DNA from: Plantactinospora mayteni
Lineage (GTDB): Bacteria; Actinomycetota; Actinomycetes; Mycobacteriales; Micromonosporaceae
Direction: 5' to 3'
Assembly: GCF_016862935.1 (NCBI RefSeq)
Contig: NZ_BONX01000009.1
Location: 1-64,000, forward strand
Length of the DNA stretch: 64,000 nucleotides
Shown: positions 15,490 through 20,866 of the stretch, piece by piece
Layout of the letters: each line of letters opens with the position of its first letter
How positions within the stretch are numbered: the first letter of the stretch is position 1
Notes under the pieces: model-generated
What the model saw: the letters and a program-made list of their open reading frames with translations, nothing else
What the model was told of the DNA's origin: nothing
Databases searched by the model: none
Program-made: the position numbers and the translations under genes

Positions 15490-16164
15490 TCAGCGGAGCA
15501 GGCCGAACAGGGCCCCGGTGGTGACCAGCCCGGCGACCACGACCACCAGCGCGGAGCGTACGTCCAGGCCGGCGTGCCGCCGGTCGGCGAGTACCCGGGC
15601 CGGTGCCAGCCCGACCACCGGGCCGAGCAGCGTCACCAGCAGCCCGAGCACCGGCATCGCCACCGCCAGGTCGCCGCCGTACCGGTCGCCGGCGGCCCGG
15701 GCGGCCAGCCCGAGGGCGTACGCGGCGGCGGCGCCGAGCACCCCGAAGAGCGCCAGCAGCGGGCGGGTGGCCGGCGGCAGCTCACCCGGTTTCCGGGCCC
15801 GGTCCAGCAGTTCCCGCACCCCGTCGAGCAGCGCCTCGACGTCGGCCGGTGCGCCCACACCGTTGCGTGGCACCGGTGGCTCGCCGACCCGCCGGTCCGC
15901 CGCGCCGAACTGGCCGCGCAGGATGCTCCACAGGTGGATCGACTCCGCCTCGGTACGGTCGACCTCCTGCTGAGCCGCCGACACCTCCGCCTCGGCCCGG
16001 CGTACCGCCTGCTCCGCGTCGCGTACCGCGCGCTCGGCGGCGGCGCACTGGCGCTGGTACCAGCCGTTCGCCTCGGTCCGCTCCGCCTCGGCCCGGCCGG
16101 TCAGCTCGGCGAGCCGCCGGAGCGCCCGGGCGTAGCTGAGGTCCCGTTCCAGGTCGCCGCTCAT
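15490..16164 (-). CDS. Coiled-coil membrane protein, last gene of the FtsK-like operon
   Basis: 224 aa from ATG 16164, overlapping the ATPase stop as ATGA. Residues 1-85 form a long charged helix/coiled coil rich in Glu, Arg and Ala. A linker with the DVEALLDGVRELLDRARK helix follows, then three hydrophobic helices at about 137-158, 168-190 and 205-224. No family recognised. Position and topology suggest the membrane anchor or channel partner of the FtsK/EccC-like ATPase. The extremely tight overlap implies equimolar production with it. Confidence 0.8.
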   Translation of the reverse strand: MSGDLERDLSYARALRRLAELTGRAEAERTEANGWYQRQCAAAERAVRDAEQAVRRAEAEVSAAQQEVDRTEAESIHLWSILRGQFGAADRRVGEPPVPRNGVGAPADVEALLDGVRELLDRARKPGELPPATRPLLALFGVLGAAAAYALGLAARAAGDRYGGDLAVAMPVLGLLVTLLGPVVGLAPARVLADRRHAGLDVRSALVVVVAGLVTTGALFGLLR

Positions 16165-19010
16165 CGGGACGGTCCATAAGGGATGATCACTTGACCGGTC
16201 CGGTGCACCGAGCGGTCGAAGAAGAGCCCGCGCCACGGCCGGGGGTACCAGTCCGGCCCGCCGCCGGCCCCGGGATAGAGCGCGGAGGTCAGCTCCGCAC
16301 CCTGCACGTCGAGCGCGACCCAGGCGCCGATCTGGTCGGTACGCGACGCCGGGCCGCCGAGGTCCACCCGCATCCGGGCCACCCCCCGCCACCAGGCCAA
16401 CGTGTGGGTACGCCGCTCCGGCCCGTTGTGTAGCACGTGCCGCAGGTGGTCGAGTCCGGACCGCCGCCCGATGGTGGTGCCGAGCTGGCCGGCCGCCGCG
16501 TCCACCGCGTAGAGCAGCAGGTAGTGCGGCTCGCCCGGAGCGCCACCGGAGCCCAGCCCGTCCGCCGTCTCGGCCATCAGCTCGCCGATGTCGTCCTCGG
16601 AGTACCAGGCGGCGTCGGCGCCGAGCGCCTCGTAGAGCGACCGGGCGGCGGTGTCGGCGTCCGGGTCCAGGCAGGCGATGGAGAACCGGGCGGTGCCGGG
16701 CGGGTGCTGGCGGCGCAGCGACCGCGCCGCCGCGTCCAGCACGGCACACGCCTCGTCCACCCCGGTGCCGAGTACGGCCAGGTTCCGGCCCGGTGCCCGG
16801 GGCAGCCGCAGCCCGGCCGACCGGGCCTGCACGTCGATGATCTCGCCGAGCAGCGCCACCGGGCCCCGGGCGCCGCCACCGGCCCGCTCCGCACCGCCGG
16901 CCCGCTCCGCACCGCCCGGCCGGTCCCCGCCGGCCGCTGCCGGGGCACCGCCGTTCGGCCCGGCGCCCCGCTCCGGCCCGACCCCGTCGGGCCAGATCGC
17001 CCCGCCGGCCGCGCGATCCCGGCCGCCGCCGACCGGGGCCGGCTCGCCCGCCGGGCGCAGCGCGACGAAGTCCGGCGCCTCGTCCAGCCGGGGGATCGCG
17101 TCGCCGTCGAAGAGCCGGGCCGGGGCCGCGTCCGGCGGGCGCATCCGCCACAGCCGGTGCTGGAGGTCGCTCCAGGTACCCCAGTCGCTGGCCGCCGGGA
17201 TCCGGGCCACCTGGTTGCCCTCGGACATCCCGGACTCGGCGTTCACGATCGCGTGGTGCCGGGGCAGCACCTGCGCGGCGTCGTTGCGCTCGGCCAGGAT
17301 GCGCAGCGCCTTGGGCAGCGCGATCCGCAGGGTGAACTGGGCGACCAGCGCCGGCCGGCCCCACAGCGCCTCGATGCCCCGGACGTCCTGCGAGGCCAGC
17401 ACCAGGTGGATGCCCTGGGAACGGCCCCGCCGGGCCAGGTCCTCCAGCAGGTCGGCCGCCTCCCGGGCGACCGCGTCCCGGCCGGCCAGCAGCATCTGGA
17501 ACTCGTCGACCACCGCGACGATCCTCGGCCAGCGGCCGGTCGGGTCCACCGCGCGCAGTTCGGCCAGCTTGGTCACCTCGTGCCGCTTGGCCGCGTCCGC
17601 CCGGCGGCGCAGCTCCTCGGCGAGGAACCGCAGCAGGGCCAGCCCGAACTCCCGGTCGGTGTTGACGTTGATCCCGACCAGCCGCATGTGCGGCAGCCAG
17701 CTCGGGTCGCGGCGGCCCTGGGCGAACCGGGCGAACGACACCCCCTCCTTGAAGTCGAGCAGATAGAACTCCAGCTCGGCGGGGGAGTAGCGGGCGGCGA
17801 GCGAGCCGATCCAGGCGAAGATCAGGTTGGTCTTGCCGGTACCGGACGGGCCGCCGATCAGCGCGTGCGGGGGATAGTCGCCCAGGGTCAGCGTCACCGG
17901 CCGGCCCTGTGGACCGTCCCCGATCGGCGCGACGAGACCGGCGGCCGAGTCCTCCCGCCACATCTCGTCGGCGGGCGGGAGCAGATCGGAGAAGGGCGTC
18001 GGCGGTGGGCCGGCGTTGACCCGGGTCGCCACCTCCCGGCAGGTCTCGGTGACCAGTGCGGCCGGCGGTGCCGGGTCGGGGCGTACCGGCAGGTCGGGGG
18101 AGCCGTCCAGCCAGGCGGTGCCGTCGTCGACCACCACCCGGTGCACGTCCGGCTCGTCGGGCAGCTCGATGCCGCGTACCAGCAGGTGCACGCCGCAGGC
18201 GGCGCCGGTCCGGGCCACCCGGTCGAGCTGGCCCCGTTCGTGTCGGGAGAGTTCGTCGCCGCCGAGCAGCACCGCGATCCGCCACGGCTCGGGGCGCCGG
18301 CCGGTCGCCGCCGCCAGCTCGCGCAGCGAGGCGTACTCGCCGGCCAGTACCGTCTCGTTGATCCGGCGGATCTGGTCGACCAGGTCGTCGAGGAGCCGAG
18401 CCAGCCCGCCCGGCCCGACGAAGGTCAGCAGCCCGGCGGTGGAGAGCGGGGCGAAGCCGGCCAGCCCGCCGCCGAGGTGCTCCGGGTCGTAGCCGACCAG
18501 CCGGAGCGCGCCGGGATCGGCCCGGCCCAGCGCCCGGAGCAGCAGCGCGGCGAGCATCGCGTCGCAGCCGCCCCGGTCGGCCCCGGACAGGTGTACGTGA
18601 CCCGCGTCGAGCAGCGGCACCAGGGCGGGTACCGGCACGCTGCCGGGCAGCCGTACCGTGCCGATCCGCAGCGGTCCCGGTGCCTCGCCCCGGACCACCG
18701 GAGTGGGCTGCCAGCCCGTCCAGTCCGTACCGGCGGCACCGGGTGCCTCCCGGGCGGCGGCCTCGGCGGCTTCCGTGGCGAGCCGGCCGATCTCCGCCCC
18801 GTACCGGTCGGACAGCTCGGCGACCCGGCGGTCCCGTTCCGCGCCGACCCGGCCGGGTACCCGGGCGGCGGCGTCCCGGATCCGGCGCAGTCGCTCCTGC
18901 GCGCCGTCGAGTTCGGTCCGCGCCGCCGTCAGCCGGGCCCGGGACGCGCCCAACGCGTGCGACAGCATGGAGCGGACCCGGTCGACGAGCTGGGTCCGTA
19001 GGTCAGGCAT
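16161..19010 (-). CDS. FtsK/SpoIIIE-domain ATPase with three RecA-like modules (EccC-like)
   Basis: 949 aa. N-terminal coiled coil (about 20-90); a first degenerate P-loop-like module (about 115-300; SGADRGGCD where Walker A would be); an active FtsK/SpoIIIE module with Walker A GGPSGTGKT (386-394) and Walker B IVAVVDEFQ (497-505); then a low-complexity Gly/Ala/Pro linker (about 665-720) and a third degenerate module (about 725-940; LGTGVDEA, no Lys). One active plus two degenerate modules resembles EccC of type VII secretion, but there is no N-terminal membrane anchor; the 224-aa neighbour may supply it. DNA pumping is the alternative. It overlaps genes on both sides (8 and 4 bp). Confidence 0.85.
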   Translation of the reverse strand: MPDLRTQLVDRVRSMLSHALGASRARLTAARTELDGAQERLRRIRDAAARVPGRVGAERDRRVAELSDRYGAEIGRLATEAAEAAAREAPGAAGTDWTGWQPTPVVRGEAPGPLRIGTVRLPGSVPVPALVPLLDAGHVHLSGADRGGCDAMLAALLLRALGRADPGALRLVGYDPEHLGGGLAGFAPLSTAGLLTFVGPGGLARLLDDLVDQIRRINETVLAGEYASLRELAAATGRRPEPWRIAVLLGGDELSRHERGQLDRVARTGAACGVHLLVRGIELPDEPDVHRVVVDDGTAWLDGSPDLPVRPDPAPPAALVTETCREVATRVNAGPPPTPFSDLLPPADEMWREDSAAGLVAPIGDGPQGRPVTLTLGDYPPHALIGGPSGTGKTNLIFAWIGSLAARYSPAELEFYLLDFKEGVSFARFAQGRRDPSWLPHMRLVGINVNTDREFGLALLRFLAEELRRRADAAKRHEVTKLAELRAVDPTGRWPRIVAVVDEFQMLLAGRDAVAREAADLLEDLARRGRSQGIHLVLASQDVRGIEALWGRPALVAQFTLRIALPKALRILAERNDAAQVLPRHHAIVNAESGMSEGNQVARIPAASDWGTWSDLQHRLWRMRPPDAAPARLFDGDAIPRLDEAPDFVALRPAGEPAPVGGGRDRAAGGAIWPDGVGPERGAGPNGGAPAAAGGDRPGGAERAGGAERAGGGARGPVALLGEIIDVQARSAGLRLPRAPGRNLAVLGTGVDEACAVLDAAARSLRRQHPPGTARFSIACLDPDADTAARSLYEALGADAAWYSEDDIGELMAETADGLGSGGAPGEPHYLLLYAVDAAAGQLGTTIGRRSGLDHLRHVLHNGPERRTHTLAWWRGVARMRVDLGGPASRTDQIGAWVALDVQGAELTSALYPGAGGGPDWYPRPWRGLFFDRSVHRTGQVIIPYGPSR

Positions 19011-19869
19011 GGGTGTCCCGGGGTGCGCGAGTGGTCACGGGTCGCTGGTCGAGGCCGAGGCGCCGCATCAGCAGTCCGGTGAGGACCCCGGCGGCGACCG
19101 CCGGATCGGCCGGGTGCGGCTGCTCGACCGGTTCCTTCGGCGGCGGCATCCGGCAGACCCGGCTGAGCAGTGTGTCGAGTACCCCCGGCGGCAGGTTGGG
19201 TACCAGGTCCCGGACTCCTCCGGTGACCTCGCGGCGCAGTCTCGGCAGGTCCGCCGCCCGGGGCGGGTGGCCGAGCAGTTCGGTGGCCAGGTCGCGCAGC
19301 ATCGGCGGGGCGACCGAGGCGAGTCCGAGCCCGACGTTCGCCTCCACGGCGCGCAGGTCGGTGTGCAGCCGGGTCCGGTCGCCGGAGCGGACGCCGCTGG
19401 TCACCCGGCGGAGCAGCTCCTCCGCGTCGGTGATCTCGCGGTCCGGCGTCGGCGCCGGGCTGTCCCGCCGGTCGAAAAGCTCGGCCACCCGGACCGACCA
19501 CCAGCCGCCGGTCGCGGCGGGCCCGACCCGCCGGCCCGGCCCGGACGAGTCCGCCGGGCCCCGGGCGCCGGGTCGGGCAGCCGGCCGCTCCGGGCCGGCG
19601 GCGGGCGGACCGTCCCGGCCCAGCCCGATCGCGGCCAGGTACGTCGTGAACTGGTCCTGGGCGAGTCGCAGCGCGTGCCCGGCCGTCTCCAGGTGCTCGG
19701 TGGCCGCCGAGAGTTCTGGTACGCCCATCGGGTCGGCCGACTCCTGCCGGACCCAGCGCAGCCGCTCGGAGGCGAGTTTCAGGTGGTCGAGTGCCTTGAT
19801 CACCAGCTCGACCGGCAGCTCGTCGGAGGCGGCCCGTACCCGGGCGCCCAACTCCTCGATGATGGACAT
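19003..19869 (-). CDS. Unknown protein, second gene of the FtsK-like operon
   Basis: 288 aa. ATG 19869 is chosen because it follows the stop of the 86-aa gene by 8 nt. Residues 1-90 are helical (EELGARVRAASDELPVELVI...), resembling the helical partner folds of small secreted WXG-type proteins; 95-130 is a Pro/Gly/Ala linker; 135-280 is a second helical domain starting WWSVRVAELFDRRD. No signal peptide or membrane segment. No family recognised. Its end overlaps the ATPase start by 8 bp. It could be an adaptor between the small helical protein and the ATPase. Confidence 0.75.
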   Translation of the reverse strand: MSIIEELGARVRAASDELPVELVIKALDHLKLASERLRWVRQESADPMGVPELSAATEHLETAGHALRLAQDQFTTYLAAIGLGRDGPPAAGPERPAARPGARGPADSSGPGRRVGPAATGGWWSVRVAELFDRRDSPAPTPDREITDAEELLRRVTSGVRSGDRTRLHTDLRAVEANVGLGLASVAPPMLRDLATELLGHPPRAADLPRLRREVTGGVRDLVPNLPPGVLDTLLSRVCRMPPPKEPVEQPHPADPAVAAGVLTGLLMRRLGLDQRPVTTRAPRDTHA

Positions 19870-19877
19870 CCGCTGCG

Positions 19878-20138
19878 CTACAGCGTCGAGACGTAGAGCT
19901 GGGCGTGTTCGACGGCGGCGAGCGTCGCGGCGAGGCACTCCTCCAACTCCTGGGCGGCCTGCGAGAGCGACGCCTGCGCGGCGTCGACAGTGGAGTGTCC
20001 ACTTCCCTCCAGCGCCCCGGCCAGGGTCTGCTGCGCCTCGGCGAGCTTGTCGCTGGCGGCCTGCACCGCGGCCTGGCCGTCGCCGATCTGCTGTAGGGCG
20101 GCGTCGATGGCCGCTTTCAGCTCGGCGACACTCGCCAC
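19878..20138 (-). CDS. Small helical-hairpin protein (WXG100-like), first gene of the operon
   Basis: 86 aa from GTG 20138 with a perfect AGGAGG at 7 nt. Two long Ala/Gln/Leu-rich helices (about 3-43 and 52-84) joined by a LEGSGHS turn, with heptad patterning, no Cys-pair, no signal peptide. Size, helical hairpin and its place at the head of an FtsK-ATPase operon recall ESAT-6/WXG100 substrates. However, there is no Trp-x-Gly in the turn and no YxxxD/E tail signal, so it is not a classical member. Secreted substrate or structural subunit are both possible. A 14-bp palindrome lies 27 bp upstream. Confidence 0.8.
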   Translation of the reverse strand: MASVAELKAAIDAALQQIGDGQAAVQAASDKLAEAQQTLAGALEGSGHSTVDAAQASLSQAAQELEECLAATLAAVEHAQLYVSTL

Positions 20139-20164
20139 GGCGAAACCTCCTGGGGGCGGGGAGG

Positions 20165-20178
20165 GCTCTAATTAGAGC
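20165..20178 (-). promoter_or_regulatory. Perfect 14-bp palindrome before the FtsK-like operon
   Basis: GCTCTAATTAGAGC is a perfect palindrome in an AT-rich island within GC-rich DNA, 27 bp before the GTG of the first operon gene. It contains a possible -10 element on the minus strand and is likely an operator. The remainder of 20139-20464 holds one hairpin (20294-20309) and no gene that I can support. Confidence 0.55.
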
Positions 20179-20464: not shown

Positions 20465-20866
20465 TCAGGTCTCCGGCACCCGGTCCGGTGGCGCGGTGAG
20501 CCAGCGCGGTCCGCGTACCTCGGCGCCGAGGGCGGTGACGCGGTCCCGCAGCGCCCGGTCGGCGGTGACCACCACGCACCTCCGGCCGGTACCCTCCGCC
20601 TCGACCAGGCCCACGACGGCGTCGTCGCCGGAGCGCTCCGCCGCGACCACCCGGATGCCCTCGGCCGGCTCCAGCCGGCGGGCCGCACCCTCCACCACCA
20701 GCACCACCTGGACCGGCGCGGCCAGCCCGGGCAGGCCCTGCCGGGCGATCGGCGCCAGCCGGTCCCGCAGCCGCGCGGTCGCCCCGGCCCGATCCCGCCA
20801 CCAGCCGTCCGGTCGGGATCCCACCACGTTGGCGGCGTCCACGACGAGGAGGGGTTCGACTGCCAT
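20465..20866 (-). CDS. YacP-like NYN-domain nuclease
   Basis: 133 aa. LLVVDAANVVGS near residue 6-17 is the first acidic motif (Asp10) of the PIN-like NYN fold; ERSGDDAVVGL (about 77-87) and VVVTADRALRDRV (about 95-107) give the other conserved acidic and basic positions, as in Rae1/YacP-type ribonucleases. Cytosolic, single domain, normal length for compact actinobacterial members, which are often misannotated as NTP pyrophosphohydrolases. It is divergent from clpC (112 bp apart). A small endoribonuclease is the most likely role. Confidence 0.75.
   Translation of the reverse strand: MAVEPLLVVDAANVVGSRPDGWWRDRAGATARLRDRLAPIARQGLPGLAAPVQVVLVVEGAARRLEPAEGIRVVAAERSGDDAVVGLVEAEGTGRRCVVVTADRALRDRVTALGAEVRGPRWLTAPPDRVPET

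What the first reader, a model, noticed from the sequence alone, without database searches (positions are those of the whole stretch)
15490..20178. Four-gene FtsK/EccC-like cassette with a WXG100-like hairpin protein
Seen: 86-aa helical hairpin, 288-aa helical protein, 949-aa ATPase with one intact and two degenerate RecA-like modules, and a 224-aa coiled-coil protein with three membrane helices, joined by 8-nt gap, 8-bp overlap and 4-bp ATGA overlap. A perfect 14-bp palindrome precedes it. Known: EccC of type VII secretion has multiple FtsK-type modules, some degenerate, and exports ESAT-6-like helical hairpins. Here EccB, EccD, EccE and mycosin are missing and the ATPase lacks its own membrane anchor. 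Inference: a reduced type VII-like or DNA-handling machine that I do not recognise as described.
Basis: partly seen in the sequence, partly recalled or inferred. Interest (0 to 1): 0.78.

Follow-up and report, generated by a model that had tools for sequence, protein, structure and literature searches.

The report
Stripped-down type-VII-like ATPase–hairpin cassette
A four-gene set, kept in the same order across a whole family of soil and marine bacteria, appears to be a minimal relative of the type VII protein-export machine: a motor, its membrane tether and a pair of small helical "passport" proteins whose fold also heads DNA-damaging toxins.

Summary
Genes of 86, 288, 949 and 224 codons lie with an 8-nt gap, an 8-bp overlap and a 4-bp overlap. 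The palindrome exists but is chance: 10 such palindromes in the window, 13.6 expected, and none of that length upstream of the gene in relatives.

The cassette is conserved in order across Micromonosporaceae. A core of ATPase, coiled-coil/membrane protein and ~86-aa hairpin recurs in two further actinobacterial families and on a Rhodococcus plasmid, including ten genomes with no EccB. All three ATPase modules resemble EccC; only the middle one keeps its Walker motifs. The hairpin is distantly WXG100-like, below every cut-off, without WXG or YxxxD/E. Its profile also matches the N-terminal leaders of DddA-like deaminase toxins and the start of the 288-aa protein.

Best reading: a reduced type-VII-like protein-export motor with a dedicated hairpin pair, split from its membrane anchor. 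It is not an ESX (T7SSa) system, not T7SSd and not a DNA translocase. The nearest described kind is a footnote in Zhang et al. 2012 (three FtsK/HerA modules, only the middle active, solo WXG, mobile). Here that kind is chromosomally fixed, in Actinomycetota. Export itself is inferred, not shown.

The parts
19878..20138 (-). Gene 1: 86-aa helical-hairpin protein (WXG100-like, loop EGSGH in place of WXG, invariant Y82, C-terminal YVSTL)
   Evidence: most conserved protein of the cassette
19003..19869 (-). Gene 2: 288-aa protein; N-terminal hairpin (residues ~20-80, ending YLAAIG), disordered linker, conserved WW..RV..L motif and helical C-terminal domain
   Evidence: (low-confidence model)
16161..19010 (-). 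ATPase, 949 aa: N-terminal coiled coil, three EccC-like RecA modules, no membrane helix
17976..18698 (-). ATPase module 1 (residues 105-345), Walker motifs lost, EccC-like
17091..17969 (-). ATPase module 2 (residues 348-640), intact; corresponds to EccC D1
17832..17858 (-). Walker A GGPSGTGKT of module 2
17502..17525 (-). Walker B IVAVVDEF of module 2
16173..16868 (-). ATPase module 3 (residues 715-946), Walker motifs lost, weak EccC-like
15490..16164 (-). Gene 4: 224-aa coiled coil followed by three hydrophobic segments; proposed membrane tether of the ATPase
20171..20178 (-). GCTCTAAT, the only part of the palindrome that recurs upstream of gene 1 in relatives; probable promoter element (inference)
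20146..20151 (-). AGGAGG ribosome-binding site of gene 1

Best explanation
The cassette encodes a reduced, type-VII-like protein-export motor. [quoted passage not shown] the membrane part is a separate coiled-coil protein with one to several C-terminal membrane helices; the first two genes encode two related helical hairpins, the second carrying an extra C-terminal domain. Inferred: the ATPase assembles as a ring (as EccC does) on a membrane platform made by gene 4; the hairpins of genes 1 and 2 pair into a four-helix bundle, as EsxA/EsxB, PE/PPE or LXG/partner do; one degenerate module binds the C-terminal helix of the hairpin with its invariant tyrosine, which switches on the middle module; ATP hydrolysis then drives the pair, or other hairpin-led proteins, across the membrane. 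Candidate clients in the same genomes are DddA-like DNA-deaminase toxins with a leader of the same hairpin family. How likely: T7-like hairpin-handling motor at the membrane about 0.65; actual export of hairpin-led proteins about 0.5; toxins as main cargo about 0.35.
For: Conserved unit: four genes in order in the full-length Micromonospora, Salinispora and Plantactinospora loci; ATPase and gene 2 or its remnant found beside the hairpin in 15 of 16 family loci, the 16th being cut by a contig end. ATPase + coiled-coil/TM + ~86-aa hairpin recur in families f78 and f79 and on a Rhodococcus plasmid. ATPase: PF01580 6.6e-23; EccCa profile 1.7e-24; PDB best hit EccC 4nh0, 5.5e-52 with a cross-family profile. 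Module 1 and 3 profiles match the genome's own EccC (best 3.8e-9 and 5.8e-8) but its FtsK only at 0.031 or not at all. Middle-module tree: cassettes form a clade (97/94) apart from canonical EccC. Hairpin: WXG100 is the most frequent Pfam match, in 12 of 16 members, below cut-off. The gene 1 profile, trained only on the Micromonosporaceae protein, finds the f78 hairpins (4.9e-12) and DddA-like toxin leaders (2e-7 to 1.7e-4); the gene 2 N-terminal profile finds the same kind of toxins (~1e-5) and gene 1 relatives; hydrophobic-pattern shuffles rarely reach these scores. Ten genomes with the module have no EccB; their cassette hairpin is the only strong hairpin hit in each of the nine that were searched. 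Sister clade: a Helicobacter plasmid operon holds WXG100 - WHH/colicin-type nuclease - SUKH immunity - three-module ATPase.
Against: No secretion data. Gene 1 scores below every WXG100 cut-off and lacks WXG and YxxxD/E. Profile E-values are for a small database (~600 proteins), and reversed sequences reach 0.004 with the gene 1 profile. Gene 4 relatives with a single tail helix are not an obvious pore. f78 genomes have no DddA-like toxin, so toxins cannot be the general cargo. All Micromonosporaceae examined also have canonical EccB, so ESX could export the hairpin-led toxins instead. No deaminase toxin was found beside the window-type cassette. The AlphaFold model of the ATPase was unusable (pLDDT 40).
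Confidence: 0.6

Rival explanations
1. Intracellular membrane-associated device (stress, chaperone-linked or anti-phage): hairpins regulate a tethered ATPase that remodels proteins inside the cell, with no export.
For: Relatives sit with Hsp70, DnaJ/TPR and GrpE genes (Rhodococcus plasmid) or a DnaJ/TPR gene (f79), with CARF, VWA, PP2C and kinase genes (Caballeronia) and near TerD genes. Gene 4 is sometimes a single tail anchor. The family locus is fixed and housekeeping-like, beside a ClpC-type gene.
Against: Hairpin family shared with polymorphic-toxin leaders. Toxin plus immunity gene lies inside a sister-clade operon. All modules are EccC-like.
Confidence: 0.22
2. Accessory to the canonical ESX system of the same cell: the hairpins and hairpin-led toxins are exported by EccB/C/D/E, and the cassette ATPase only feeds or regulates it, like EccA or EspG-type helpers.
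For: Every Micromonosporaceae genome examined has EccB; one cassette paralogue lies about 16 kb from an EccC gene on contig C17.
Against: The ATPase + gene 4 + hairpin module persists in ten genomes with no EccB match.
Confidence: 0.12
3. DNA-handling machine (FtsK/SpoIIIE or conjugation-type translocase).
For: PF01580 match of the middle module. The C17 paralogue lies next to conjugation-like genes.
Against: Degenerate modules resemble EccC, not FtsK. No relaxase or DNA-binding partner in the cassette. The genome's own FtsK is a separate gene on C23.
Confidence: 0.05

Closest known systems
Three-module 'YueA-like' FtsK/HerA ATPase with solo WXG proteins ('mobile versions of T7SS'), Zhang et al. 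2012, PMC3482391 Table 1 note 6
   Same: Three modules with only the middle one active; one small WXG-like protein; no EccB/D/E. Caballeronia and Helicobacter plasmid examples branch next to the cassette clade.
   Different: [quoted passage not shown] Here chromosomally fixed in Actinomycetota, hairpin without the W, a second hairpin gene, a defined coiled-coil/TM partner.
T7SSa / ESX (EccC with EccB, EccD, EccE, MycP; EsxA/EsxB)
   Same: EccC-type ATPase modules, hairpin proteins, gene pair.
   Different: No EccB/D/E/MycP, no membrane anchor on the ATPase, three modules instead of four, no WXG or YxxxD/E.
T7SSd of Olsenella/Bifidobacterium (Garrett et al. 2024, PMC11217815)
   Same: Actinomycetota, few components, no ubiquitin-like protein.
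   Different: TsdC has FHA domains, membrane helices and four NTPase domains; kinase TsdD and giant TsdI absent here.
Pfam DUF6244 (PF19757)
   Same: 87-aa hairpin encoded beside the C10-type paralogue of the ATPase (L143, E 2.1e-27). No paper in the held library names it.
   Different: Gene 1 matches it only weakly (E 0.17).
DddA-like (SCP1.201) deaminase toxins, PF14428
   Same: The ~85-aa N-terminal leader of several of them belongs to the same hairpin family.
   Different: They carry a toxin domain; candidate clients, not parts of the machine.

Membership tests
T7SSa / ESX | EccB, EccD, EccE, MycP encoded with EccC | tested here: not met
   Not among the four genes or the conserved neighbours; EccB absent from ten genomes with the module
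T7SSa / ESX | EccC with N-terminal membrane helices and four NTPase modules | tested here: not met
   No membrane helix; three modules
WXG100 (PF06013 / TIGR03930) | score above curated cut-off | tested here: not met
   19.7 of 27.3 bits and 20.5 of 44.85 bits
WXG100 | WXG motif in the loop | tested here: not met
   EGSGH in gene 1; WDG in one of 16 members
WXG100 | C-terminal YxxxD/E | tested here: not met
   YxxxL at the C-terminus in all 16
WXG100 | ~100-aa helical hairpin | tested here: inconclusive
   86 aa, sequence pattern fits; most frequent Pfam match in 12 of 16 members but sub-threshold; gene 1 itself not folded
T7SSd | FHA domains on the ATPase, kinase TsdD, large TsdI | tested here: not met
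   No FHA match; no such genes among the four
Three-module 'mobile T7SS' class (Zhang 2012 note 6) | three FtsK/HerA modules, only the middle active | tested here: met
Three-module 'mobile T7SS' class (Zhang 2012 note 6) | solo WXG protein | tested here: inconclusive
   WXG100-like hairpin below cut-off
Three-module 'mobile T7SS' class (Zhang 2012 note 6) | mobile | tested here: not met
   Fixed synteny in Micromonospora, Salinispora and Plantactinospora; a Rhodococcus relative is on a plasmid
FtsK/SpoIIIE DNA translocase | motor modules of FtsK type, DNA translocation | tested here: not met
   Degenerate modules EccC-like, tree apart from FtsK; DNA translocation itself not testable
Any T7SS | ATPase-dependent secretion of the hairpin | not testable with these tools
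   needs a secretome experiment

The most novel reading that the evidence does not exclude
A separate, EccB/D/E-independent type-VII-like secretion class of Actinomycetota: the EccC membrane anchor is a separate coiled-coil tail protein, a hairpin family without WXG is the export passport, and it exports hairpin-led toxins including DddA-type DNA deaminases.
Probability: 0.35. Interest if true: 0.85.

Novelty: new variant of a known kind. Interest (0 to 1): 0.68.

Why it matters
All T7SS subtypes listed in 2024 (T7SSa-j, PMC11217815) use a membrane-anchored ATPase with four modules. This cassette suggests that an EccC-like motor with three modules and a detached anchor is enough for a hairpin-based system, which would define the minimal core of type VII export. 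It may also explain how actinobacterial DddA-like toxins, a source of base editors, are exported, and it gives a mechanism to test for DUF6244 and related orphan hairpins.

Tried and rejected
Palindrome as operator: rejected. sigma-70 promoter and terminator scan: nothing found. AlphaFold of the ATPase: pLDDT 40 despite 28 sequences (too alike), so no fold search was run on it; gene 2 model pLDDT 53, used only for the N-terminal hairpin. Phages: only generic FtsK matches. Gene 1 against plasmids by tblastn: none; the plasmid relative was found only through the ATPase. PADLOC: only FtsK-type matches of the motor (mad8, SspH), no defence system called. Multi-genome searches with the whole 949-aa ATPase failed in the tool, so the third module was used instead. 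Weak matches of the coiled-coil parts to filament, GrpE, ZorA and similar were set aside as composition. Two even phylum samples gave 2 of 246 genomes with gene 1 and 3 of 246 with module 3: the system is clade-restricted, not universal.
Full report
WHAT IS THERE. The window lies on contig C9 of a 9.84-Mb, near-complete genome whose nearest named relative here is Plantactinospora endophytica. The gene 2/ATPase overlap of exactly 8 bp recurs in 47 relatives, and the gap before gene 2 is 5-13 nt in nearly all, which suggests translational coupling.

PALINDROME. GCTCTAATTAGAGC (20165-20178) is real, but the window holds 10 perfect 14-bp palindromes and shuffles give 13.6. In 61 relatives no perfect palindrome longer than 10 bp lies in the 80 nt upstream of gene 1; only the half GCTCTAAT recurs (46 of 61). 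I read it as a promoter element (inference), not an operator.

CONSERVATION. The full-length Micromonospora, Salinispora and Plantactinospora loci carry all four genes in order, at one chromosomal site between a ClpC/NYN side and a JmjC side. In a draw of one genome per genus, 17 of 21 family genera have gene 1, and the neighbourhood holds the ATPase and gene 2 in all but one locus cut by a contig end. Gene 1 is the most conserved (84-100% in the near relatives).

WIDER DISTRIBUTION. The third ATPase module was used as bait. It found relatives in two other families of the class. Their neighbourhoods show ATPase, then a coiled-coil protein with C-terminal membrane helices, then an 86-87-aa hairpin. 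Micromonosporaceae also have two paralogous types. One (C10 type, L143) has DUF6244 as its hairpin (E 2.1e-27). The other (C17 type) has no hairpin beside it and in some genomes has lost Walker A. A Rhodococcus plasmid carries Hsp70 - DnaJ/TPR - GrpE - ATPase - coiled coil with tail helix - 86-aa hairpin. Gene 2 was found only in Micromonosporaceae. Even phylum samples show that the system is rare outside these clades.

THE MOTOR. Middle module: PF01580 E 6.6e-23, EccCa E 1.7e-24. A nine-sequence cross-family profile matches the solved EccC 4nh0 at 5.5e-52 and FtsK at about 1e-20. Profiles of the two degenerate modules match the genome's own EccC proteins (best 3.8e-9 and 5.8e-8) but its FtsK only at 0.031 (module 1) or not at all (module 3). 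The Rhodococcus relative aligns to EccCa over both its first and second modules (residues 113-574). In a tree of middle modules the actinobacterial cassettes form a clade (97/94) apart from canonical EccC; the plasmid versions from Caballeronia, Helicobacter, Rhodococcus and Deinococcus branch next to them, with weaker support. The ATPase has no membrane helix; gene 4 supplies one to several.

THE HAIRPINS. Gene 1 is WXG100-like only at sub-threshold level (12 of 16 members, best E 2.4e-4), without WXG and without YxxxD/E. A profile trained only on the Micromonosporaceae protein finds, among about 600 predicted proteins, the f78 hairpins (best 4.9e-12) and then the N-terminal leaders of DddA-like deaminases (best 2e-7). 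A profile of the gene 2 N-terminus finds toxins of the same kind (about 1e-5) and the gene 1 family. Reversed-sequence controls reach at best 0.004 (gene 1 profile) and 0.098 (gene 2 profile). For the gene 1 profile no shuffle that keeps the hydrophobic pattern reaches the real score for five of nine leaders, and 1 to 28 of 1000 do for the rest; for the gene 2 profile none does for six of nine. A joint profile then found the f79 cassette hairpins, which were not in it (9.2e-9 and 1.3e-6). It also picked out gene pairs elsewhere in which a small hairpin is followed by a longer hairpin-led protein (L208, L209), the same layout as genes 1 and 2. The window's own genome has a leader-bearing DddA-like protein on contig C65.

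INDEPENDENCE FROM ESX. EccB is present in every Micromonosporaceae genome examined but absent from ten f78/f79 genomes that carry the ATPase/anchor/hairpin module. In the nine of these searched, the cassette hairpin is the only strong hairpin hit. So the hairpin belongs with this ATPase and does not need canonical ESX. DddA-like toxins are absent from those genomes, so toxins cannot be the universal cargo.

MECHANISM (inferred). By analogy with EccC (PMC11217815 and references there): a ring of ATPases docked on gene 4 at the membrane; hairpins of genes 1 and 2 pair; the C-terminal helix with the invariant tyrosine is read by a degenerate module and activates the middle one; the pair and/or hairpin-led cargo is moved outward. 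Support from outside: the sister-clade Helicobacter plasmid operon contains a WXG100-like protein, a nuclease with WHH and colicin-DNase matches, a SUKH immunity protein and the three-module ATPase close together on one strand.

WHAT IS KNOWN. Zhang et al. 2012 (PMC3482391, Table 1 note 6; [quoted passage not shown] Garrett et al. 2024 (PMC11217815) list T7SSa-j; the ATPases of the new subtypes are described as membrane-bound with four NTPase domains, and the only new actinobacterial one, T7SSd, does not match. I found no paper on this cassette in the held library; subscription papers are not held. Hence: new variant of a known kind.

LIMITS. No experiment; no usable ATPase model; several E-values are relative to a small custom database; the families f78 and f79 are unnamed in the tool.

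Noticed in passing
G000:C65:27022-27741 (L153); L157, L160, L164, L166, L169, L171, L173: DddA-like (PF14428) deaminase toxins of Micromonosporaceae with an ~85-aa N-terminal hairpin leader of the gene 1/gene 2 family.
   Followed up: yes
L020:8470-11448 (G000:C17); L144, L145: C17-type paralogue of the ATPase with a coiled-coil/TM partner beside folE/ftsH and conjugation-like genes; Walker A is lost in G003 and G441 (GRSDADRS, GRSQAGRS), so it may be a pseudo-ATPase.
   Followed up: partly
L213:4334-12551 (Rhodococcus pseudokoreensis plasmid NZ_CP070617.1): Hsp70, DnaJ/TPR and GrpE genes directly before the ATPase-coiled coil-hairpin module, followed by a 272-aa protein with a helical-looking N-terminus and a small gene, perhaps effector and immunity.
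   Followed up: partly
L148:2539-6480 and L204:6493-11340: Stand-alone hairpin genes near Hsp70-like genes in two Micromonosporaceae genomes, one of them the window's own (contig C23).
   Followed up: no
L141:5548-8328 (f79): The third ATPase module is cut off by an in-frame TAG, so it may be expressed as a separate protein or be a sequencing or assembly fault.
   Followed up: no
L214 (Caballeronia plasmid pSBC2-5): Three-module ATPase operon with WXG100, VWA, CARF (DUF1887), PP2C and kinase genes: a possible regulated conflict island.
   Followed up: no
L208:4510-6007 (G007): Small hairpin gene overlapping a 237-aa hairpin-led protein with an unknown C-terminal domain, followed by a 178-aa gene without Pfam match (possible toxin/immunity pair).
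   Followed up: partly
window 20465-20866 (-): 133-aa protein with weak YacP-like NYN similarity, kept next to the cassette in most near relatives, between it and a ClpC-type gene.
   Followed up: no
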